Below are positions 16,047 through 42,009 of a DNA stretch of 64,000 nt, piece after piece. Source of the DNA: Erodium maritimum (lineage: Eukaryota > Streptophyta > Magnoliopsida > Geraniales > Geraniaceae); assembly GCA_963921825.1 (NCBI GenBank), contig OY997594.1:68123675-68187674 (forward strand). Reading direction: 5' to 3'. Every line of letters begins with the position of its first letter. Position 1 is the first letter of the stretch. A program made the translations under genes and the position numbers. Below the pieces are notes generated by a model. The model made no database searches. It worked only from the letters and a program-made list of their open reading frames with translations, and was not told the DNA's origin.

Positions 16047-16523
16047 TTTTTTCCCGTTCAATACTAGGGATGGGATTCGTTCCTCTGGCTCTGGAAGGAT
16101 CTAGTCGTCACCAGAGATATCTAGCGACATCTCCGACTTCGTTTTGAGGGATTTGTTGAGGCCATTACCGTCCAGCTTCAGTACGAGAAGATCCCACACT
16201 TTTTCTATCGATGCGATAGCCTAGATCATCTAAACAGGGATTGCATGACAATTCTGTCAAGGTAGAGCGACATGCAATAAGGTACTCTGATGATCTTTGG
16301 GATCTCGTAGGTATTCAGACCGATGGGTACTTCCAGGCAAATTCAGAAGCACCGTCACATTTATCTATGTGTTGGACCATTAACTTGTACTGGGAACGAC
16401 CCTCTCATCGATCCAACCTTTCATGGGAGCACAACGAGAGACCCCCCGGGAGACATTCCATGCTTCAATACAATTACTACATTAGGGATCGATTTTCCAA
16501 ATTGGAGATCAAAGGAAATCCGA

Positions 16524-16873
16524 CCTACAGTGTTGCCTAATTTACAATTAAGTATGTTTGCCATGTTATCTGAATTAGGAGGATGGGAAGATATCGGGAA
16601 GGGATAGGTAGTATGTAACCCGACTCTGATACTTGTTCGACCTACAGTCTTTCCTAATTAACAACTAAGTATGTTTGCCATGTCATCTGAATTAGGAGGA
16701 TTGGAAGGTATCGGGAAGGGATAGGTAGTATGTAACCCGACTCCGATACTTGTCTGACCTATAGTCTTTCCTAATTTACAACTAAGTATGTTTGCCATGT
16801 AATCTGAATTAGGAGGATGGGAAGGTATCGGAAGGGATAGGTAGTACGTAACCCGACTCCTATACTTGTCCGA
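16524..16873 (+). repeat. 117-bp tandem repeat, three units
   Basis: Units at 16524-16640, 16641-16757 and 16758-16873 (117, 117 and 116 bp). Each begins CCTA(C/T)AGT and contains AAGTATGTTTGCCATGT, GAATTAGGAGGAT and GTAACCCGACTC; a fourth unit starts (CCCGCAGTCTTTCC) and breaks off. It lies within LINE copy A. Confidence 0.85.
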
Positions 16874-17024
16874 CCCGCAGTCTTTCCTAACTTGGGCTAG
16901 TTGGGATTTCAGCTAACCCAACATACAGATCCCAACACAGTGGTATATGCCTCTGCCACCACCTTGACTGCCATTGATACTCAGTTTTCCACAGCTACCT
17001 CGTCCAAAGGATGAGTCATTGATT

Positions 17025-20647: not shown

Positions 20648-20963
20648 TTTTTTTCTCCTTTCAATTTTCCATTCGTTGCAAAAACATACGTAATGTTTCA
20701 TGTTTCAAAACATTACCCTATCGAAGGAGTGGGTTTTTACAACCAGATTGTAATCTCGACCGTAAAGAATTCATTCTGTTATATTTTGTTTCGACAAGAA
20801 CACTATTGATCAATGAAGTACATCATTTTCAAAAAAAAAACAATCATATTATTCCCATTACAGACGCCATGTTTTACCTAACCTTTTCTTTTTTGTAATC
20901 CACCTATGCGTTTCGTTATCAAGGCTTGACAACACGTTATTTCAAATGCCAGAACAATTAACT

Positions 20964-21938
20964 CTAAGACCCATTGACGAATTTTTGTATAATAGAATGA
21001 AGCTCCACGGCCTTATCAGCATCAAGGAACTCCAACCCGTGTGTACCGTCCTCCTGGAACACACTCTGGACCGCCGCTCCCTTCTCCTCCAGCATCTTCG
21101 CGAACGCCGTCTGATGGTCATGCATCACGTCCCCTTCGAACCCAGTCACCAGAAACCTCCATCCGAGGGCTCTCATCTTCTCCACGTCCTCCGACCCCCA
21201 CCAGCCGTCGGATTACAGTACTCGTGATCACGGTCCGCACCCACCGGCAGGGCATGTCCCCACATCTCATCCAAAACACTCGGCGGAACAAACGGGTCGT
21301 CGATCATCCTCAGCTCGGTCGGCGTCCTCCGGCTCGACCCGAAGAAAGGGTGGTGCAGTATCATCCCCCTGATCTCCACCGGCCTGAGCTCGGAGGGCGC
21401 CGCCGCCGCACGTAAGCCCACGTGGTACGCTATGTTGCCGCCGGCGCTGTTCCCCATGAGGAAGCAGCGGGACAGGTCGGCGTGGTCTCGGAGCCAGTCG
21501 ACCCTGGGCGGAGTTGGTCTTGATCCAGTGGAGCGCGTGCGTGGCTTCGTCGTACGCGGCGGGGAGGCGGCGCTCGGGGGCGAGGGGGTACTTGAAGGAG
21601 ACGACTACGGCGGGGATGGAGGCGGCCATGTCGGAGCAGAAGATGTGGAACATGGTGCTGTCCGGGGAGCAGAGGACGAAGCCTCCGCCGTGGTAGTAGA
21701 ATACGACGGGGAGCTTATTGGCGCCGTGTATCAGGGACTGGCTCGGGAGGTAGACGCGGAACCATGCGTCTGGGCCGAGCCTGACGTCCTTGGAGAGGAC
21801 GGGAGTGGGATTGTTGGGATCGTAGGTCGGGGTGGGCTCGCTCGACGGAAGGTCTAACGTTCGAATGACTGAGCCGTCTGGATTGACAACTACTTGGAGT
21901 CGCTGTTCGGCTCCGGAATGAGGTTCAGCTGCTGCCAT
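20964..21938 (-). pseudogene. Carboxylesterase (CXE) copy A, frameshifted
   Basis: Nearly identical to the intact copy at 32636-33607, starting at MAAAEPHSGAEQRLQ (ATG at 21938). The oxyanion motif YHGGG, the nucleophile motif GNSAGGN and the DGTHGLEF histidine are all encoded, but not in one frame. Compared with the intact copy there is one extra C near 21502-21504, after codons for NSAQ, and one base missing in a C-run near 21195-21199, after TAGGG. The frame is thus broken upstream of the catalytic serine and again before the catalytic Asp/His. No full esterase can be made. The flanking sequence on both sides is also duplicated (20742 to about 22170 matches 32402 to about 33842), so this is a segmental copy, not a retrocopy. 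Sequencing error could mimic either single-base change. Confidence 0.85.
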
Positions 21939-22167
21939 TGTGTCTCGGGGAGTTCTAAGTTATACGATAGGACCTTGTTATTATATATGTGGAGACATAG
22001 CCCTTAATTAAGTGATATTATTTTTGTGTTTGATTCACTTAAATAGTCGGCTTGAACTTTTAGTCCTAAGGGATGACTGTGTTTGATTCCACTTAATTAA
22101 TAGTCGGCTTCAACATGCGAATATTCAAAAGTTCATAACTTTTTTGTTAAATTTCTACCGGTTTAAT

Positions 22168-32499: not shown

Positions 32500-32635
32500 G
32501 AAACAAATAATCATATTATTCCCATTACAGGTGATATATGTTTTACCTAACCTTTTATTTTTTAGTTAATCCATCCATGCGTTTCCTTATCAAAGCCTTG
32601 ACAACAGGTTATTTTAAATGCCAGAATAATTAACT

Positions 32636-33607
32636 CTAACACCCATTGACGAATTTTTGTATGATAGAGTGAAGCTCCATGGCCTTCTCAGCATCAAGAA
32701 ACTCCAACCCGTGTGTACCGTCCTCCTGGAACACAGTCTGGACCGCCGCTCCCTTCTCCTCCAGCATCTTCGCGAACGCCGTCTGATGGTCATGCATCAC
32801 GTCCCCTTCGAACCCAGTCACCAGAAACCTCCATCCAAGGGCTCTCATCTTCTCCACGTCCTCCGACCCCCCGCCAGCCGTCGGATCGCAGTACTCGTGA
32901 TCACGGTCCGCACCCACCGGCAGGGCATGTCCCCACATCTCATCCAATACACTCGGCGGAACAAACGGGTCGTCGATCATCCTCAACTCGGTCGGCGTCC
33001 TCCGGCTCGACCCGAAGAAAGGGTGGTGCAGTATCATCCCCCTGATCTCCACCGGCCTGAGCTCGGAGGGCGCCGCCGCCGCACGTAAGCCCACGTGGTA
33101 CGCTATGTTGCCGCCGGCGCTGTTCCCCATGAGGAAGCAGCGGGACAGGTCAGCGTGGTCTCGCAGCCAGTCGACCTGGGCGGAGTTGGTCTTGATCCAG
33201 TGCAGCGCGTGCATGGCTTCGTCGTAGGCGGCGGGAAGGCGGCGCTCGGGGGCGAGGGGGTACTTGAAGGAGACGACTACGGCGGGGATGGAGGCGGCCA
33301 TGTCGGAGCAGAAGATGTGGAACATGGTGTTGTCCGGGGAGCAGAGGACGAAGCCTCCGCCGTGGTAGTAGAATATGACGGGGAGCTTGACGCCGTGTAT
33401 CAGGGACTGGCTCGGGAGGTAGACGCGAAACCATGCGTCGGGGCCGATCTTGACGTCTTTGGAGAGAACGGGAGTGGGATTGTTGGGATCGTAGGTCGGC
33501 GTGGGCTCGCTCGACGGAAGGTCTAACGTTCGAATGACCGAACCGTCTGGATTGACAACTACTTGGAGTCGCTGTTCGGTATCGGAAGGAGGTTCAGCTG
33601 CTGCCAT
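32636..33607 (-). CDS. Carboxylesterase, CXE1/HSR203J type, 323 aa
   Basis: Intact single-exon alpha/beta-hydrolase (fold 3) from ATG 33607 to the stop at 32636. The oxyanion-hole motif HGGG is at 82-85, the nucleophile elbow G-N-S-A-G at 161-165 (Ser163), the likely catalytic Asp269 in GFEGDVMHD, and His299 in EDGTHGLEF. The sequence, for example IMGxSAGGNIAYHxGLRAAA and PxGADRDHEYCxPTA, matches the plant cytosolic carboxylesterase CXE1 of kiwifruit and tobacco HSR203J in length and motifs. These hydrolyse short acyl esters; the natural substrate here is unknown. It is not a gibberellin receptor of the GID1 type, because an acting Ser-Asp-His triad is kept. No signal peptide is evident. It is the intact member of a local family with a frameshifted copy at 20964-21938 and a remnant at 15796-16046. 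Confidence 0.92.
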   Translation of the reverse strand: MAAAEPPSDTEQRLQVVVNPDGSVIRTLDLPSSEPTPTYDPNNPTPVLSKDVKIGPDAWFRVYLPSQSLIHGVKLPVIFYYHGGGFVLCSPDNTMFHIFCSDMAASIPAVVVSFKYPLAPERRLPAAYDEAMHALHWIKTNSAQVDWLRDHADLSRCFLMGNSAGGNIAYHVGLRAAAAPSELRPVEIRGMILHHPFFGSSRRTPTELRMIDDPFVPPSVLDEMWGHALPVGADRDHEYCDPTAGGGSEDVEKMRALGWRFLVTGFEGDVMHDHQTAFAKMLEEKGAAVQTVFQEDGTHGLEFLDAEKAMELHSIIQKFVNGC

Positions 33608-33647
33608 TGTGTCTTTGGGGAGTTCAAAAGTTATACGATAGGACCTC

Positions 33648-33841: not shown

Positions 33842-35796
33842 TAAGAGTACAATCCAACGAACAGTAACTCAGGAGACCAGCACCTAGGCGTCCCACCCAA
33901 ACCAATGAGCAGTACCTCAGGGTAGACCGGGTGAATCCTCTGGCCCTAGAAGGACTAAGTGATTCGTGCCACTCCGCGTAACAGCAGGTCGACCCCATAA
34001 GCCCCCCGGATGAGTACTCACTGGACTTAAGTGGGAACATAAGTAACTTGTCTTGACACCTGAACAGAAACTCGTCGAACCTGCAGACCAAACAAGGTCA
34101 ACTAGTAATCAACCTCCTTCCGCGTTTCCTAGGCCAAATACACCAGCTAGGACAACGTTGCCAATCGGAATGGGAAGTAGAAGAGCGCAAAGAACCGACA
34201 TTCCACAGAGTATTATAAGACATCAACAGGATACTGCCGAAAAAAACATCACAAACATCAAGAACAGCGTTAAAACTGTCCCGTTACGCGAGAGCCAAAT
34301 CTTCCAAATGGTGATGTAGCACACTCTGACCCCAATATTACAACCATTAAGATCAAAGAAGCGAGCACTGGCATACAGAAACAACCTCAAAACAAACCCA
34401 ACACGGGAGAATAATGGTCTGAAAACCTACTAAGACAATCAAATAAGCACAAGGCAAAACGGCTAAAAAAAGAGTATAACCTGGATTTAGCAACCATGAA
34501 ACACAAAGAAAAACAGGTCTACAACCTAGATTTGACAATCATGAACCTCAAATAAGGTAGCCGTCGTCCAATGAAAACACATACAACCTTACCTGAACTT
34601 GAGGATAATACTGTATCTCATTGGCACCCAAACTCAGGAGGGCACCGACACGCCGATGACCAATATAGCAAACCGACAGAGATATTTTCCGTTGAATAAT
34701 CACCGAAACTCAAAACCCAAAGAAGTAGGACTCCTCAATTTATAAGGCCTAAAGACCCAGTATAACTCGTCATAGGCCAACACCTAAGAGAATGGCACCC
34801 CCCCCCCCCCCCCCAACAATAGGCAGGGATACAAAGGAAATCGAAACGAGCAGAATTTCAACAAGCCACGGGAAAAGAAAAATTTAAGACAAGAACCTTA
34901 CCATCCGCGACGACGAGGGACAAGACCAGATACACAACGAATCCGAGAACAGAAACGCTTCTCAGGGTAGATCTGGTACAAACCACCTGAGAGTCACCTC
35001 GAACGGGTCCGGAGAACAGCCCAGTTACCCTGCAGCAACCCGATAATCCCTCGACAGCACACATATCGGGAACCTCCGCCCAAACCAGTACCACAACGAA
35101 TCCGAGACGGAAGCACTTCCCACGGTAGCACTGATACCTCTTCTCCGGTCACGAAGAAGATCGGGACGGCTGAAAACTTCAACACCCCACCCAAACTCAC
35201 ACCACCACGCAGGCAAGACGAAAATGTCTCGGATCTGCCAGAGGCGGGCCAGATCCGATATCCCACGCCAATGACAAGCTCCGACGAGAACAAAATGGGT
35301 TCCACACGGTCTGAGGAGCAGTACTTCCTACGAGCTCCACGGAAAACTCCACGACAACACCACCCACACCCAAACAACTGGCAAAAGAACAGCTGGCGAC
35401 CCCACCCCCGTAGGTCTCGAGATCCCGAGCCGGGCTCCAACCTACCCAAGGACAAATCTGAAGATGGAACCAGATTTTGCGAGGGAAGTAACCAGAGCTT
35501 AGGCCACGCAACGAGACCAAGCTCCCGCACATCATTGTGACGATGCAAGCAGACGGACGAGCCGTCGAGCTCCGAAACGGTCAGGCCACCAGGACGTCAA
35601 GCACAAGACAAAACGGAGACAGAGGGGGAAGGAGGGAGGAAGGAGAAGAAGTGTAAGATGGGTTGAACGAGAAAGGAGTAGAGTGAAGCCTCCGCCAGCC
35701 ATAGAACTGTGGCCCGAAACCGACGGAGATAAGAGGCGACAATTGAAAAGGGGCTGGTTTTAATGTCTTAGAGAGGGAAAATTTGAGGGTCCTTGA
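33842..35796 (-). mobile_element. LINE-like minus-strand sequence, no coding core
   Basis: The first 200 bp match the 3' region of LINE C (compare 27443-27650): AACAGTA(A/C)CTCAGGAGACC, GGGTGAATC(C/T)TCT and GA(G/A)TACTCAC(T/C)GGAC. The rest is mid-GC sequence with only unassigned minus-strand frames (35548-34994, 35094-34858). From about 35600 to 35790 it looks like a CT-rich leader on the minus strand. It carries a 17-C run at 34798-34814. The left edge is exactly where the esterase duplication stops matching. Boundaries are approximate. Confidence 0.4.
34798..34814. repeat. 17-base C run
   Basis: Uninterrupted C17 after AATGGCA. Confidence 0.9.
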
Positions 35797-36058
35797 TGAT
35801 AGAGTTTAACTCTGTGTGTATATTCACATTCAACACAAGTATAAGTATTGTGTTACAGGGTAAATATTTCAAAACCTATACAATATTATCTACAGAGTTT
35901 GAATTGTTTCAAACTCTAGATATGAACATATCTAGAGTTTGAAACAATTCAAACTCTGTAGATAATATTGTATAGGTTTTGAAATATTTACCCTATCTGT
36001 AACACAATACTTATACTTGTGTTGAATGCGAATATACACACAAAGTTAAACTCTATCA
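35797..36058. repeat. Palindromic left end of the copia element
   Basis: TGATAGAGTTTAACTCTGTG at the start and its inverse at the end. Arms of about 128 bp meet near 35925-35935 (TCTAGATATGAACATATCTAGA). The right arm equals the copia LTR minus its first bases; the left arm is the same sequence inverted. Confidence 0.9.
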
Positions 36059-37296
36059 TGGTATTAGAGACTTACCATTTTTTTTTAAAACCCTATTTTT
36101 TTTTCTCTTTCTCAATCGCTTTCGCAGCGTTAATTTCCATTTTATTGCGTTCTAGTTCCCAAATTGGATCGCATCTATTCCTTCTGCAGGCCTTGATTTT
36201 GCTCTACGCGCAACACTTCCACCTGCATTCTTTGTGTTTCTTCTGCACACAGAACATCCACCCACCGCACCTCCATGGCTGATCCGCGTCATTACCCAGC
36301 TCTTACCGTTGTTAATATTCGATCCTCCATCCCTATCACTCTTGAGATGGAAAAGGGTCAATATTCTTCGTGGGTGGAGCTGTTCCGCATCCATTTCCGT
36401 GTCTACCAGGTTCTACATCATATTCTTCCGGACACAGCCGGATCGAGCCTCCCTCAGATTCCGTCACCTGCTGCTCCGTCCACCACTCCTGCTGCTCCGA
36501 CCAACCAACCTGCTGCTGATATTACAGATGCCACAGACTCCTCGACTGAGGTGTCTACCGAGGTCACAGACACAGCACCTCCGGCGACCACAATGGCTGC
36601 CCTTGGGTCCTCTTCTCCTACCGACGTTCCCCTGGATATTTGGGATCGTCTCGACTCCACCGTGCTCCAATGGATTTATGGTACGATTTCTGGCGACTTG
36701 CTTTAGACAATTATTGTACCGAATAGCACAGCTGCTCAGGCGTGGAACGCTCTTCGCCTAATTTTTTAGGATAATAGGCATTCTCGTGCCGTTTACCTTG
36801 AACACCAGTTTTCTACGACAAATTTAGATAATTTTGCTAATGTTTCTAGTTTTTGTCAAGAGCTCAAAATTGTTGCAGATCAGTTATCTGATTTAGGGGC
36901 ACCTGTTTCTAACAATCGGTTGGTGCTTCAATTGGTTGCGGGGTTCTCGGAAGCATACGACAATGTTGCAACATTGATTCAGAAAAGCGGCCCGCTTCCT
37001 CCATTTTATGAAGCTCGTTCTAAGCTCATTTTGGAGGAGACTCGTAAGTCGAAACAGGCGGCGTACGGTGCTCAATTATCGGACTCAGCATTATATACCA
37101 ACTCAGCTCCTCCGTCTCCTAAAGATGTTGTCGACAAGTCTCATGCTCGTAGTCCCTCTCGTGGTCGGCCATCTGGTCGTGGTAGGTAGAATCTGTCCAA
37201 AACTGGTTGTGGCCGGCAACATCTGAATCAGCGTTCTGCTGCTCAATCTGGGCCTGTTCCACATTTCTCTTGGCCCATGCAATGGGGCGGCCAGCA

Positions 37297-37959
37297 TGTA
37301 ACACCCCGTCGTCCCACACAGGGCCCCACGCGCGGCGATGTTAGGTTTGCAGCCCAATACACCCCAACCCCTCTGGTGCATTGTCCACAGACAAATACTA
37401 ACCTAGGTTGTTGGTGAGACTTGAACCCAAGACCTCACCCTTTATAGCATTTCCTTGAGTGATGCTATCACCAATTGAGCTGGTCTTGGGTTCAAGTCTC
37501 ACCAACAACCTAGGTTGGTATTTGTCTGTGGACAATACACCAGAGGGGTTGGGGTGTATTGGGCTGCAGACCTAACATCGCCGCGCGTGGGGCTCTGTGT
37601 GAGGCACGGCGGGATGTTACAAAAAAAGTGCACTTTTTTGTAACACCCCGCCGTCCCACACAGGGCCCCACGCGCGGCGATGTTAGGTCTGCAGCCCAAT
37701 ACACCCCAACCCCTCTGGTGTACTGTCCACAGACAAATACCAACCTAGGTTGTTGGTGAGACTTGAACCCAAGACCTCACCCTTTATAGCATCACTCAAG
37801 GAAATGCTATAAAGGGTGAGGTCTTGGGTTCAAGTCTCACCAACAACCTAGGTTGGTATTTGTCTGTGGACAATGCACCAGAGGGGTTGGGGTGTATTGG
37901 GCTGCAAACCTAACATCGTCGCGCGTGGGGCTCTGTGTGAGGCACGACGGGATGTTACA
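37297..37959. mobile_element. Double foldback element inside the copia element
   Basis: Two foldback units, 37297-37621 (325 bp) and 37639-37959 (321 bp), lie in opposite orientation around a 17-bp centre, AAAAAAGTGCACTTTTT. Each unit begins TGTAACACCCCG and ends CGGGATGTTACA with arms of about 150 bp. The asymmetric loop (CATTTCCTTGAGTGATGC in unit 1) appears inverted in unit 2, which shows that the units are inverted copies. The whole insert is flanked by CAGCA at 37292-37296 and 37960-37964. It has no coding capacity. TG...CA ends and a 5-bp duplication resemble LTR-type integration, but no primer site is visible. Family unknown. Confidence 0.8.
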
Positions 37960-40900
37960 CAGCAACTATGGCCTGGACAGACTAGTGCGAATTGGGCAGG
38001 TCCTTATGGACCTTGGGCTGGCCCAATACTAGCACCCCTTCCCTGCCTATACCCCACAGCGCCTGGGCAGTGGGTGCGGGCCTCCTCTCCTCAACAGCAA
38101 GCTGCTGTATTGGGGCCCCGCCCGTCCTCCCATCAGGCCCACATAGCGGTTTCTACAGACATCAATTCCGCCAAGGCTAATCTATCGATACAACAGCCTC
38201 CCGACTCCACATGGTACATGGACAGTAGCGCCTCATCTCACATGACATCGAACTCAGGTATCCTTGATTCTTTTGTTAATTTGAACTTAAATCGTTCTAT
38301 TATAGTTGGTGATGGCAATGTTATTCCCATTTCTGGTTACGGTAGAGCATCCATTTTCCCATCTCACCCTTACTACACCTTAAATGATGTCCTGCATGCA
38401 CCCAAAATAGTTAAGAACTTAGTTTCAGTACGACGTTTTGTTAAGGATAACAATGCCTCAATAGAATTTGACCCCTTTGGTTTTTGTGTGAAGGATTTTC
38501 GGACGGGACACCCGATTTTGAGATGTAATAGCACAGGCGAATTGTACCCTGTCACTTCTACTGTTTCACCTAGTTCGTCTTTTCATTCGTCAGCTTTAGT
38601 TGCTTTGTCTCCAGATATTTGGCACTCTCGCCTTGGTCACCCGGGATCACCAGTTTTTGATTTACTTCATCGTTCTAAAGTTATTTCTTGTACGTCGAAT
38701 AAATTGAATAATGTTTGTCATTCTAGTGTGTTTGGAAAGCATATTTGGTTACCCCTTTATTCTTCTTCGTCTGTTACACATGCTCCATTTGACATTATAC
38801 ATGCTGATTTGTGGACGTCACCCATACTGAGTTCTTCTGGACATAAATATTATTTGGTGTTAATTGATGATTATACGAATTTTGTATGGACATTTCCCAT
38901 GGCCCGCAAATCTCAAGTTTTCAATATATTCACCTCGTTTAATATTTTTGTGTCTACTCAATTCAATTGCAAAATCAAAAGCTTTCAGTGTGATAATGGC
39001 AAGGAATTCGACAACACTCCATTTCACAACTTCAGTAATTCCTCTGGCATGGTGTTCCGCTTCTCGTGTCCACACACCTCGTCTCAAAATGGTCGTGCGA
39101 GCGCAAGATACGGAGTTTGAATAACATGGTTCGTACGTTAATAATCCATGCTTCAATTCCTCCTTCGTTTTGGCATCATGCTTTATCTATGTCTACATAT
39201 CTGTCCAATATTCTTCCCTCCAAAACACTTAATTTTTCCTCTCCCACGTTGTACTTATATAAACGTGCTCCCGATTATTCCCATCTTCGTGTTTTTGGGT
39301 GTTTATGTTTCCCTCTCTTTCCGTCCACTTCTATTAATAAGTTGCAAGCTCGGTCTACGCCGTGTGTATTTTTCGGATTTCCTCCGAACCATAGGGGGTA
39401 CAAATGCTATGATTTAAAAACGAACAAGTTCATTATTTCGAGGCATGTTATCTTTGACGAAACCGTCTTCCCTTTTTCATCCACATTTTCATCATCCCCA
39501 CCCTTATATGATTTTTTAACTAATACCATCTCTCCTATTTTACGAAATCATATTTTCCCCCCCGCTCCTTTTCCCCACAGCCTGGCCCTGTACCATATAC
39601 TTTACCTCCACATATTGTTTCTTCCGGCCCAGCAAAAAACGCAGCCGATAGCCCAGACATGCCCATAGCCTAGAGCCCGACCAGGAGCCCGCCTACCCAG
39701 CCCCAGCTCCCCACTCCGCCTGAACCGGTTCCTCTCCACCCTATTCCTGACCCAGATGGGCCCAGCCCACCAGCAGCCGCACGCCCTGCTCTGCAAATCC
39801 CATGCGACACCTTGGTGCAAGCTCCGCAAGTCACCCATCAACACCCGATGGTCACCCGTGGACGCCTAGGCATCGTAAAACCAAAAGTCCTTTTTAACCT
39901 TACTGCCACTACCACAATTTCCCCCATACCTCGTAACCCTAGGGATGCTCTCCTTGACAAAAATTGGAAATCGGCTATGATAGATGAATTTAATGCTCTT
40001 ATTAACAATAAAACGTGGGTCCTAGTTCCTCGTCCTATAGGAGTCAATATTATTCGGTCCATGTGGATTTTTCGCCATAAGACTCGATCTGACGGTTCTT
40101 TTGAGCGATATAAGGCTCGTCTTTTTGGTGATGACAGGTCTCAGCAGGTTGGAGTTGATTGCGAGGAGACATTCAGCCATGTGGTTAAACCATCAACCAT
40201 TCGCATCGTCCTCAGTATCGCGATATCCCGCTCCTGGTCTATTCATCAGCTCGATGCCAAGAACGCCTTCTTGCATGGCAACCTCAGTGAGACGGTCTAC
40301 ATGCATCAACCGCTTGGATTTCGGAATCCTGATTATCCTGACCATGTCTGCCTACTGTATCGCTCTCTTTATGGGCTTAAGCAGGCTCCTCGGGCGTGGT
40401 ACCAACGTTTTACTGATTTTGTCACCACTCTTTGTTTTTCTCATAGCAGGTCGGATCACTCGCTAGTTATATATATATCTTATATTCTCCTTTATGTGGA
40501 CGATATCATTCTTGCTTCCTCGAGTGATGATCTCTGGCGCTTCATTATGACCCATCTTAGCTCGGAGTTTGCTATGAAGGACTTGGGTCCCCTTTCATAC
40601 TTCTTGGGGATTGTTGTCACTCGACATCCTGGTGGCATGTTTCTATCCCAGAGGAAGTATGCTGATGACATTATTGATCGAGCCGGCATGTCGTCGTGTT
40701 CCTCCTCTGCTACACCATTCGACACTCTGGGAAAGCTCAACGCTTCCGACAGTTCTCCGTTTGAGAACCCCACTCTCTATCGTAGTCTTGCAGGGGCGCT
40801 TCAGTATCTCACGTTCACTCGACCAGACATTTCGTATGCAGTTCAACATATCTGTCTCCACATGCATGATACCCGTGTTAGCCATATGGGCGCTTTGAAG

Positions 40901-41455
40901 CGCATTATTCGGTATCTTCAGGGAACGAGGCATCTCGGTCTTCAGCTATACTCCTCGCCCTCCTCCAGTTTGGTTGCATATACTGATGCTGATTGGGCAG
41001 GTTGCCCGGATACACGACGTTCCACTTCTTGTTATTGTGTGTTCTTGGGAGATAACCTGATATCTTGGTCTTCCAAGCCACAGCCGACGTTGTCTCGCTC
41101 GAGCACCGAGGCTGAGTATCGTAGGGTTGCCAATGTGGTTTCCGAGGCATGTTGGCTTCGTAATCTCCTTCTCGAGCTCCATTGTCCAGTTTCTAGAGCC
41201 ACCTTGGTATACTGTGATAACATCAACACCATTTACCTCACCGGCAACCCTGTTCAGCATCAGCGCACCAAGCACATTGAGCTAGACATTCACTTCGTTC
41301 GTGAGAAGGTCGCCAAGGGGCACGTCCGCGTGATTCATGTTCCGTCTCGATCCCAGATCGTGGACATATTCACCAAGGGCTTACCCCGTGTTCTTTTCCT
41401 TGATTTCCAGACCAGCCTGAACGTCCGTGAACCTCCCGCTCAGACTGCAGGAGCG

Positions 41456-41612
41456 TGTTAGAAATAGAACATATATAGAGTTTGAAACAATTCAAACTCT
41501 ATAGATAATATTGTATAGGTTTTGAAATATTTACCCTATCTGTAACACAATATTTATACTTGTGTTGTACTTGTGTTGAACGTGAATATACACACAGAGT
41601 TAAACTCTATCA
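41456..41612 (+). repeat. Right LTR of the copia element
   Basis: TGTTAGAAATAG at the start and GTTAAACTCTATCA at the end, 157 bp, preceded by a purine-rich GCAGGAGCG. Followed by the CTTGA duplication. Confidence 0.85.
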
Positions 41613-42009
41613 CTTGACTAAAGTTGAAAGTTTATTTTCAATTGGCAGAGTGGTTCAACATATAATTCAAGGTCATGGGTTGGAGTCACTGTCTTTGAGT
41701 GTTTAGACTCACATTTCACATTTGTTTTTTAGAAACATAAAATATATACTACCTAGCCAGGAAGTTCCAGTATTGTTCTTCGGTCGGACAAAAAACATCA
41801 TGTCCTATCGGGTCATACCAGTATCGTTCTGCGGTCGAACAAAAAACATCAGGTCCTATCGGGTCATTTTGTCATCCCTGTATTCCAGTGTCTTAGTAAA
41901 TCATGTGTGTGTATGTTCAATGCACCAACAAGACATTAAGTACAATTAATTCAGTATCAATATTTCAAGTTTAAGGAACATGTTTCAATCCACCCGTATA
42001 AAAAAAGGC
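41613..42009. other. Spacer with a possible tRNA-derived SINE head
   Basis: At about 41644-41690, TTGGCAGAGTGGTTCAA resembles a pol III A box (TGGCAGAGTGG) and GGGTTGGAGTCAC, 30 bp on, resembles a weak B box. A 41-47-bp repeat with 'CCTATCGGGTCAT' follows at about 41760-41870. No clear tail or TSD. It also includes the 3' flank of the permease gene. Confidence 0.3.

What the first reader, a model, noticed from the sequence alone, without database searches (positions are those of the whole stretch)
35797..36058. A copia element that begins with an LTR palindrome instead of an LTR
The 3' LTR (41456-41612) is a normal 157-bp repeat starting TGTTAG. The 5' end is 262 bp and is an almost perfect inverted duplication of that LTR: the end of the LTR (TGATAGAGTTTAAC, inverted) now forms the outer edge, and the arms meet near 35930. 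The element is bounded by CTTGA on both outer sides, so the palindrome seems to have been part of the molecule at integration. A simple LTR-to-LTR exchange would not give this; self-priming or intra-element integration during cDNA synthesis could.
Basis: partly seen in the sequence, partly recalled or inferred. Interest (0 to 1): 0.8.

Follow-up and report, generated by a model that had tools for sequence, protein, structure and literature searches.

The report
Palindromic LTR ends inserted by integrase
A jumping gene carries a mirror-image end that was very probably already there when it was inserted, and the same genome holds other mirror-image insertions made from the ends of related elements, which points to a recurrent copying error whose products are still inserted in the normal way.

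Summary
The 5' end of the copia element (35797-36058) is a near-perfect head-to-head palindrome of its LTR with U5 ends outward, lacking about 12 nt of U3, and the element is bounded by CTTGA on both sides. The arms carry private mutations and share no derived change against the 3' LTR, so the palindrome is about as old as the insertion and unlikely to be an assembly artefact.

The case is not alone. In the window's own 763-Mb genome I found 19 further insertions from related LTR types whose two outer ends are both U3 starts and which are bounded by perfect 5-bp duplications: 16 stand-alone (64-204 bp), one of 989 bp, and two elements with a palindromic 3' end. Of 46 pattern hits 14 have a 5/5 duplication; 0 of 2070 mismatched flank pairs do.

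Best explanation: a growing cDNA strand switches onto a same-sense nascent strand and copies it back to its own priming site; integrase inserts the product. The copying step is inferred. Integration of two cDNAs in trans followed by end joining is the main rival. Ten literature searches showed no description of such insertions.

The parts
35792..35796 (.). left target-site duplication CTTGA
35797..35924 (-). left arm: inverted LTR copy, U5 end outermost (TGATAG), with a private 4-bp deletion
35925..35926. centre of the palindrome (AA); arms overlap by 1 nt if 35924 is counted to both (by hand)
35927..36058 (+). right arm: 5' LTR lacking about 12 nt of its U3 start
36059..36069 (+). primer-binding-site-like sequence TGGTATTAGAG directly after the LTR (initiator-tRNA type, recalled)
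37873..39120 (+). pol piece with Pol_BBD, gag_pre-integrs and rve integrase matches
39812..41461 (+). pol piece with RVT_2 reverse transcriptase match
41442..41455 (+). purine-rich stretch before the 3' LTR (polypurine-tract-like, by eye)
41456..41612 (+). ordinary 3' LTR, 157 bp, with a private 11-bp duplication
41474..41503 (+). native U3 hairpin (13-bp stem, 4-nt loop)
41613..41617 (.). right target-site duplication CTTGA

Best explanation
SHOWN: the element is bounded by a 5-bp duplication that lies outside a head-to-head LTR palindrome, so it very probably entered the chromosome as a linear DNA with a U5 end at both termini; and it belongs to a class of palindromic LTR-ended insertions in this genome, the others found having U3 starts outward. 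INFERRED: a growing cDNA strand switches onto another strand of the same sense (a nascent strong-stop DNA, or itself) and copies that strand back to its own 5' priming site. For a PPT-primed plus strand that site is the U3 start (U3-out palindromes); for a tRNA-primed minus strand it is the U5 end (the window's U5-out 5' LTR). Both are proper LTR termini, so integrase inserts the molecule with a normal 5-bp duplication.
For: Window: CTTGA outside the palindrome; private changes: 3' LTR 4 substitutions and an 11-bp duplication, right arm 2, left arm one 4-bp deletion, 0 derived states shared by the arms; breakpoints of the two arms within 3 nt of each other (by hand). Class: 14 of 46 hits of three U3..U3' patterns have 5/5 flanking duplications against 0 of 2070 mismatched pairs; five more by other routes: C6:10966975-10967083 ATAAG, C1:119680496-119680616 CAATT, C5:65699494-65700482 ATAAT, element C6:13983145-13984234 GGAAG, element C9:41996694-42001794 GATGT. 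Other loci matching the 64-bp palindrome stop at its nt 44-48, the end of the native hairpin's 3' arm, in 38 of 39 and at nt 40 in one. Outward pairs in similarity tables: 5 of 6 are 121-178 bp, the scale of strong-stop DNA. U5-out patterns gave the window and one chance match.
Against: No cDNA intermediate was seen. A hairpin alone has one closed end, so a second strand or an opening step is needed. Overlap at the joint is 1 nt in the window and 0 in C6, so microhomology is not general. One outward pair is 989 bp and holds 5' interior sequence, longer than strong-stop DNA. C9 has a complete 3' LTR and an extra A before its 57-bp palindrome, which needs a further joining step. The U5-out searches covered few LTR types and lengths, so the U3/U5 asymmetry is weak evidence. 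Hits with arms of 18 nt or more and no 5/5 duplication of any kind found: C2:3167923 and C7:262390 (4/5), C7:71508303, C3:6121448, C5:3333923, C4:73426712, C3:73677950.
Confidence: 0.6

Rival explanations
1. Integrase joined like ends of two cDNAs (two U3 ends, or in the window two U5 ends) to one target, and the two free tails were then trimmed and joined by the host (end joining, with or without microhomology).
For: Also gives exact LTR termini, 5-bp duplications, variable joints with 0-12 nt overlap and arms from two templates. The 989-bp case and the near-complete C6 and C9 elements fit without extra steps.
Against: Tails of several kb should leave wide and symmetric arm lengths; 5 of 6 outward pairs found without a length filter are 121-178 bp, and in the three longest cases the short arm is 112, 68 and 28 nt. 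The window arms break within 3 nt of each other. U3-out and U5-out should be about equally common.
Confidence: 0.27
2. A normal insertion was rearranged later in the chromosome (replication template switch, gene conversion, or unequal exchange with an inverted copy).
For: Palindromes and hairpins are prone to such changes; the loop of one LTR (C4:55623236) is inverted.
Against: Would have to put an exact LTR terminus next to the duplication in 20 separate insertions; in the window no derived state is shared by the arms.
Confidence: 0.06
3. They are a DNA-transposon-like (MITE or foldback) family that resembles LTR starts.
For: Short, inverted ends, target duplication.
Against: Four palindromes searched as wholes had no second full-length copy (in one search two other palindromic loci reach 76-77% identity over nt 1-80/81 of 83). 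Arms match LTR starts of two-LTR elements. Ends differ between LTR types.
Confidence: 0.03
4. Assembly artefact.
For: Inverted duplications with tiny spacers are a known artefact type (recalled).
Against: Arms differ by two substitutions and an indel; duplications outside the palindromes.
Confidence: 0.02

Closest known systems
Ordinary Ty1/copia LTR retrotransposon insertion
   Same: RVT_2, rve and gag_pre-integrs matches, integrase before RT, LTR with TG..CA ends, PBS-like and PPT-like sites, 5-bp duplication
   Different: One LTR is a head-to-head palindrome, so both termini are the same LTR end
Self-primed strong-stop DNA and aberrant template switching of retroviruses (HIV-1 self-priming; inverted duplications in retroviral DNA, Olsen & Swanstrom 1985; both recalled, the latter not held)
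   Same: Same type of error: a nascent strand copied as an inverted duplicate
   Different: As recalled, these are cell-free products, circles or defective DNA; here products sit in a genome with intact termini and target duplications, repeatedly
HIV-1 proviruses with asymmetric LTRs (PMC9278108; start of abstract in a listing and passages seen)
   Same: Unequal LTRs explained by template switching between co-packaged genomes
   Different: Deletions, not inverted duplications
MITEs / foldback elements (recalled)
   Same: Short palindromic insertions with a target duplication
   Different: No second full-length copy where searched; arms are LTR starts
Tf1 self-priming, as cited in PMC5445492 (passages seen)
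   Same: Self-complementarity used for priming
   Different: There the normal start of reverse transcription on RNA; here a proposed error on DNA strands

Membership tests
Ty1/copia LTR retrotransposon | RVT_2 reverse transcriptase and rve integrase, integrase upstream of RT | tested here: met
   RVT_2 4.1e-57, rve 1.3e-11; order
Ty1/copia LTR retrotransposon | 5-bp target-site duplication and TG..CA termini | tested here: met
   CTTGA; TGATAG..CTATCA
Ty1/copia LTR retrotransposon | two direct LTRs at the termini | tested here: not met
   the 5' end is a palindrome; only its inner arm is direct
Solo LTR | one U3-R-U5 unit between target duplications | tested here: not met
   stand-alone palindromes end in a U3 start on both sides
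MITE / foldback DNA transposon | family of near-identical dispersed copies | tested here: not met
   for four palindromes; the others were not searched as wholes
DIRS-type retroelement with inverted LTRs | no target duplication, tyrosine recombinase instead of rve integrase (recalled) | tested here: not met
   rve; duplication
2-LTR circle or tandem insertion | LTRs joined head to tail (U5 to U3) | tested here: not met
   head-to-head joint inside U3
Self-primed or strand-switched strong-stop product | linear palindromic cDNA in particles | not testable with these tools
   needs cDNA from an active laboratory element

The most novel reading that the evidence does not exclude
In this copia lineage, palindromic strong-stop DNAs with two identical LTR ends are a regular, integration-competent by-product of reverse transcription (6 outward pairs beside 33 same-orientation pairs in the tables, three of the four tables being centred on LTR types already known to have made a palindrome). 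Integrase accepts two U3 ends or two U5 ends, and the lineage thereby keeps seeding the genome with unique MITE-like hairpins.
Probability: 0.55. Interest if true: 0.85.

Novelty: new variant of a known kind. Interest (0 to 1): 0.77.

Why it matters
Same-sense strand switching is, as far as I recall, known mainly from cell-free products or dead-end DNA. Here it would leave datable fossils in a genome with exact termini and target duplications. It would mean that integrase does not need one U3 and one U5 end, give a route from LTR retrotransposons to unique hairpin insertions that could be misread as MITEs, and allow switching sites of plus- and minus-strand synthesis to be mapped from genome sequence alone.

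Tried and rejected
Nested solo LTR with its own duplication: no such duplication at the arms; the duplication lies outside the whole element. Tandem LTR or simple exchange: wrong geometry. Autointegration: would bury an LTR terminus, while here termini are outermost.

by arm length (cut-off of 18 nt is mine): of 23 hits with longer arms 12 have 5/5 and 2 have 4/5; of 23 with shorter arms 2 have 5/5 (C1:125372865, C2:11207726, each with only an 11-12-nt inverted cap, both counted in the 14) and 1 has 4/5. The other nine long-arm hits: C6:13983145 and the two C9 hits belong to elements with a duplication further out; C6:10966975 holds a 109-bp palindrome with ATAAG; C7:71508303 has a 24-bp flanking repeat instead; C3:6121448 is a rearranged element end without a clean duplication; C5:3333923 and C4:73426712 look like another repeat type; C3:73677950 reads as an ordinary LTR. 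C1:75563900 sits in a larger inverted repeat. Duplications of 4/5, not counted in the 19: C2:3167923, C7:262390, C9:8327559, C1:148240725. Mismatched flank pairs reached 4/5 in 41 of 2070, true pairs in 3 of 46, so the 4/5 cases are weak.

Literature: ten searches answered (listings read); one search was bounded to before 1985 and says little. Two papers were opened for passages.

Full report
Observation. The sequence at 35797-36058 is a 262-bp head-to-head palindrome of the element's LTR. The inner 68 nt of the arms are perfectly complementary around AA at 35925-35926, the outer 63 nt are 97% complementary. The right arm and the 3' LTR (41456-41612) are direct copies, but the right arm lacks the first 12 or so nt of U3. 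The outer edge of the left arm is the U5 end (TGATAG). CTTGA flanks the whole element (35792-35796, 41613-41617). The interior holds pieces of a Ty1/copia element in several frames, with integrase before RT.

Age of the palindrome. Aligned with relatives, the 3' LTR has four private substitutions and an 11-bp duplication; one of the four is less certain because the C2 relative shows the same state at the edge of its aligned piece. The right arm has two private substitutions and the left arm a 4-bp deletion. No derived state is shared by the two arms, as would be expected had one arm been copied from an already aged 5' LTR. With so few changes this is a modest test, but it fits a palindrome as old as the insertion, and the differences between the arms argue against an assembly artefact.

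The window copy in its genome. The window lies in a 763-Mb assembly of 40 contigs; plant-like by inference, species not determined. The U5-out palindrome was seen only here (40 of 118 candidates scored, one pattern). Two relatives have the mirror anatomy at the other end. Element C6:13983145-13984234 ends in a 3' LTR made of LTR nt 1-110 followed by inverted nt 68-1 and is bounded by GGAAG. Element C9:41996694-42001794 ends in a full 3' LTR, one A and a 57-bp U3-U3 palindrome and is bounded by GATGT.

Stand-alone insertions. Three pattern searches for a U3 start facing a U3 start gave 22, 8 and 16 hits, against 2, 3 and 1 for the reversed pattern. All 46 hits, at 45 places, were read with flanks. 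Fourteen have a perfect 5-bp duplication; pairing the flanks of different hits gave 0 of 2070. They are C8:56734438, C3:4328216, C4:41266495, C1:75815916, C4:68479271, C6:2904292, C1:27112714, C1:147790912, C5:56738324, C2:5915061, C7:9883820, C5:16815063 and, with only an 11-12-nt inverted cap, C1:125372865 and C2:11207726. Five more came by other routes: a 109-bp palindrome inside another LTR (C6:10966975-10967083, ATAAG), C1:119680496-119680616 (CAATT), a 989-bp one (C5:65699494-65700482, ATAAT), and the C6 and C9 elements. Total: 19 U3-out with perfect duplications, plus the window. By eye the U3 starts fall into about a dozen types. Of ten loci read as parents, eight have nearly the same interior end before the LTR as the window element; one of the ten (L087) turned out to be the right end of the 989-bp insertion. 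Three stand-alone palindromes and the window's were searched as wholes, without a second full-length copy; two other palindromic loci reach 76-77% over nearly the whole query.

Anatomy of the joints. The general form is LTR nt [1..b] followed by inverted [a..1]. For the 64-bp case two parents match nt 1-47 and 1-46 exactly and then stop, and 38 of 39 other loci stop at 44-48, one at 40; one of the 39 (C2:5915221) is itself part of a palindromic insertion. That stretch is the U3 start plus the whole native hairpin; the rest is the start copied back. The hairpin folds as single-stranded DNA with a 13-bp stem in the window LTR (no shuffle of 200 as good) and a 12-bp stem in L079 (2 of 200 as good). 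Overlap at the joint, computed by hand, is about 12 nt in C1:27112714 and C6:2904292, about 5 in C3:4328216, 4 in C9, 1 in the window and 0 in C6. Joints of the other insertions were not resolved to the base. In C8:56734438 the arms differ at 10 of 78 aligned sites, four of them at the inner end where the arms may already have parted; at two sites the right arm shares its state with only one of nine relatives, which suggests but does not prove two templates.

Length and orientation without a length filter. In the tables I took 132 LTR starts (left out: the palindromes used as queries and one internal hairpin match). Neighbours within 15 kb are 33 in the same orientation (two-LTR elements, and at least one tandem LTR pair), 6 outward (121, 124, 162, 174, 178, 989 bp; one of them, C1:148240725, with a 4/5 duplication) and 1 inward, the window. 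Those tables score only the best candidates, and three of them are centred on LTR types already known to have made a palindrome, so 6 to 33 is not an unbiased rate. Two U5-out patterns over other LTR types gave one chance match and none; by eye they would match 6 of the 10 parent loci read.

Mechanism. Shown: duplications lie outside palindromes that end in exact LTR termini. Inferred: same-sense strand switching during cDNA synthesis, with copying back to the 5' priming site of the nascent strand. This explains exact U3 ends (PPT-primed plus strands) and the exact U5 end in the window (tRNA-primed minus strand), the short second arm (112, 68 and 28 nt in the three longest cases), and a preference for U3-out if it is real. 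The main rival, integration of like ends of two cDNAs followed by end joining, is not excluded.

Known or new. Ten searches of the open-access library showed no description of such insertions in their listings; two papers were opened for passages. Older work on inverted duplications in retroviral DNA is recalled and was not available. I rate it a new variant of a known kind: a known type of reverse-transcription error, here recurrent and integrated with intact termini.

Noticed in passing
window 37297-37959: A 663-bp insertion inside the window element, absent from relatives C2 and C7: two head-out palindromes of a unit of about 174 bp separated by 17 bp, TG..CA ends, CAGCA on both sides. It may be the same phenomenon in another family, or a foldback element.
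   Followed up: partly
L028 (G000 C4:55623236-55623346): LTR whose U3 hairpin loop is inverted (GAATTGTTTC instead of GAAACAATTC).
   Followed up: no
L018 (G000 C8:46278426-46278706): Two LTRs nearly directly head to tail (TTACA|TGTTAG) without interior.
   Followed up: no
L043 (G000 C2:77416178-77416822): Relative of the window element whose 5' LTR is split by an insert of about 490 bp.
   Followed up: partly
L074 (G000 C7:71508303-71508398): 96-bp U3-out palindrome flanked by a 24-bp direct repeat instead of a 5-bp one.
   Followed up: no
window 16519-16890: Tandem array of a 117-bp unit, 3.2 copies.
   Followed up: no
window 20921-21950 and 32593-33619: About 1 kb of direct repeats 11.7 kb apart, 88-98% identical in pieces, possibly LTRs of another element.
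   Followed up: no
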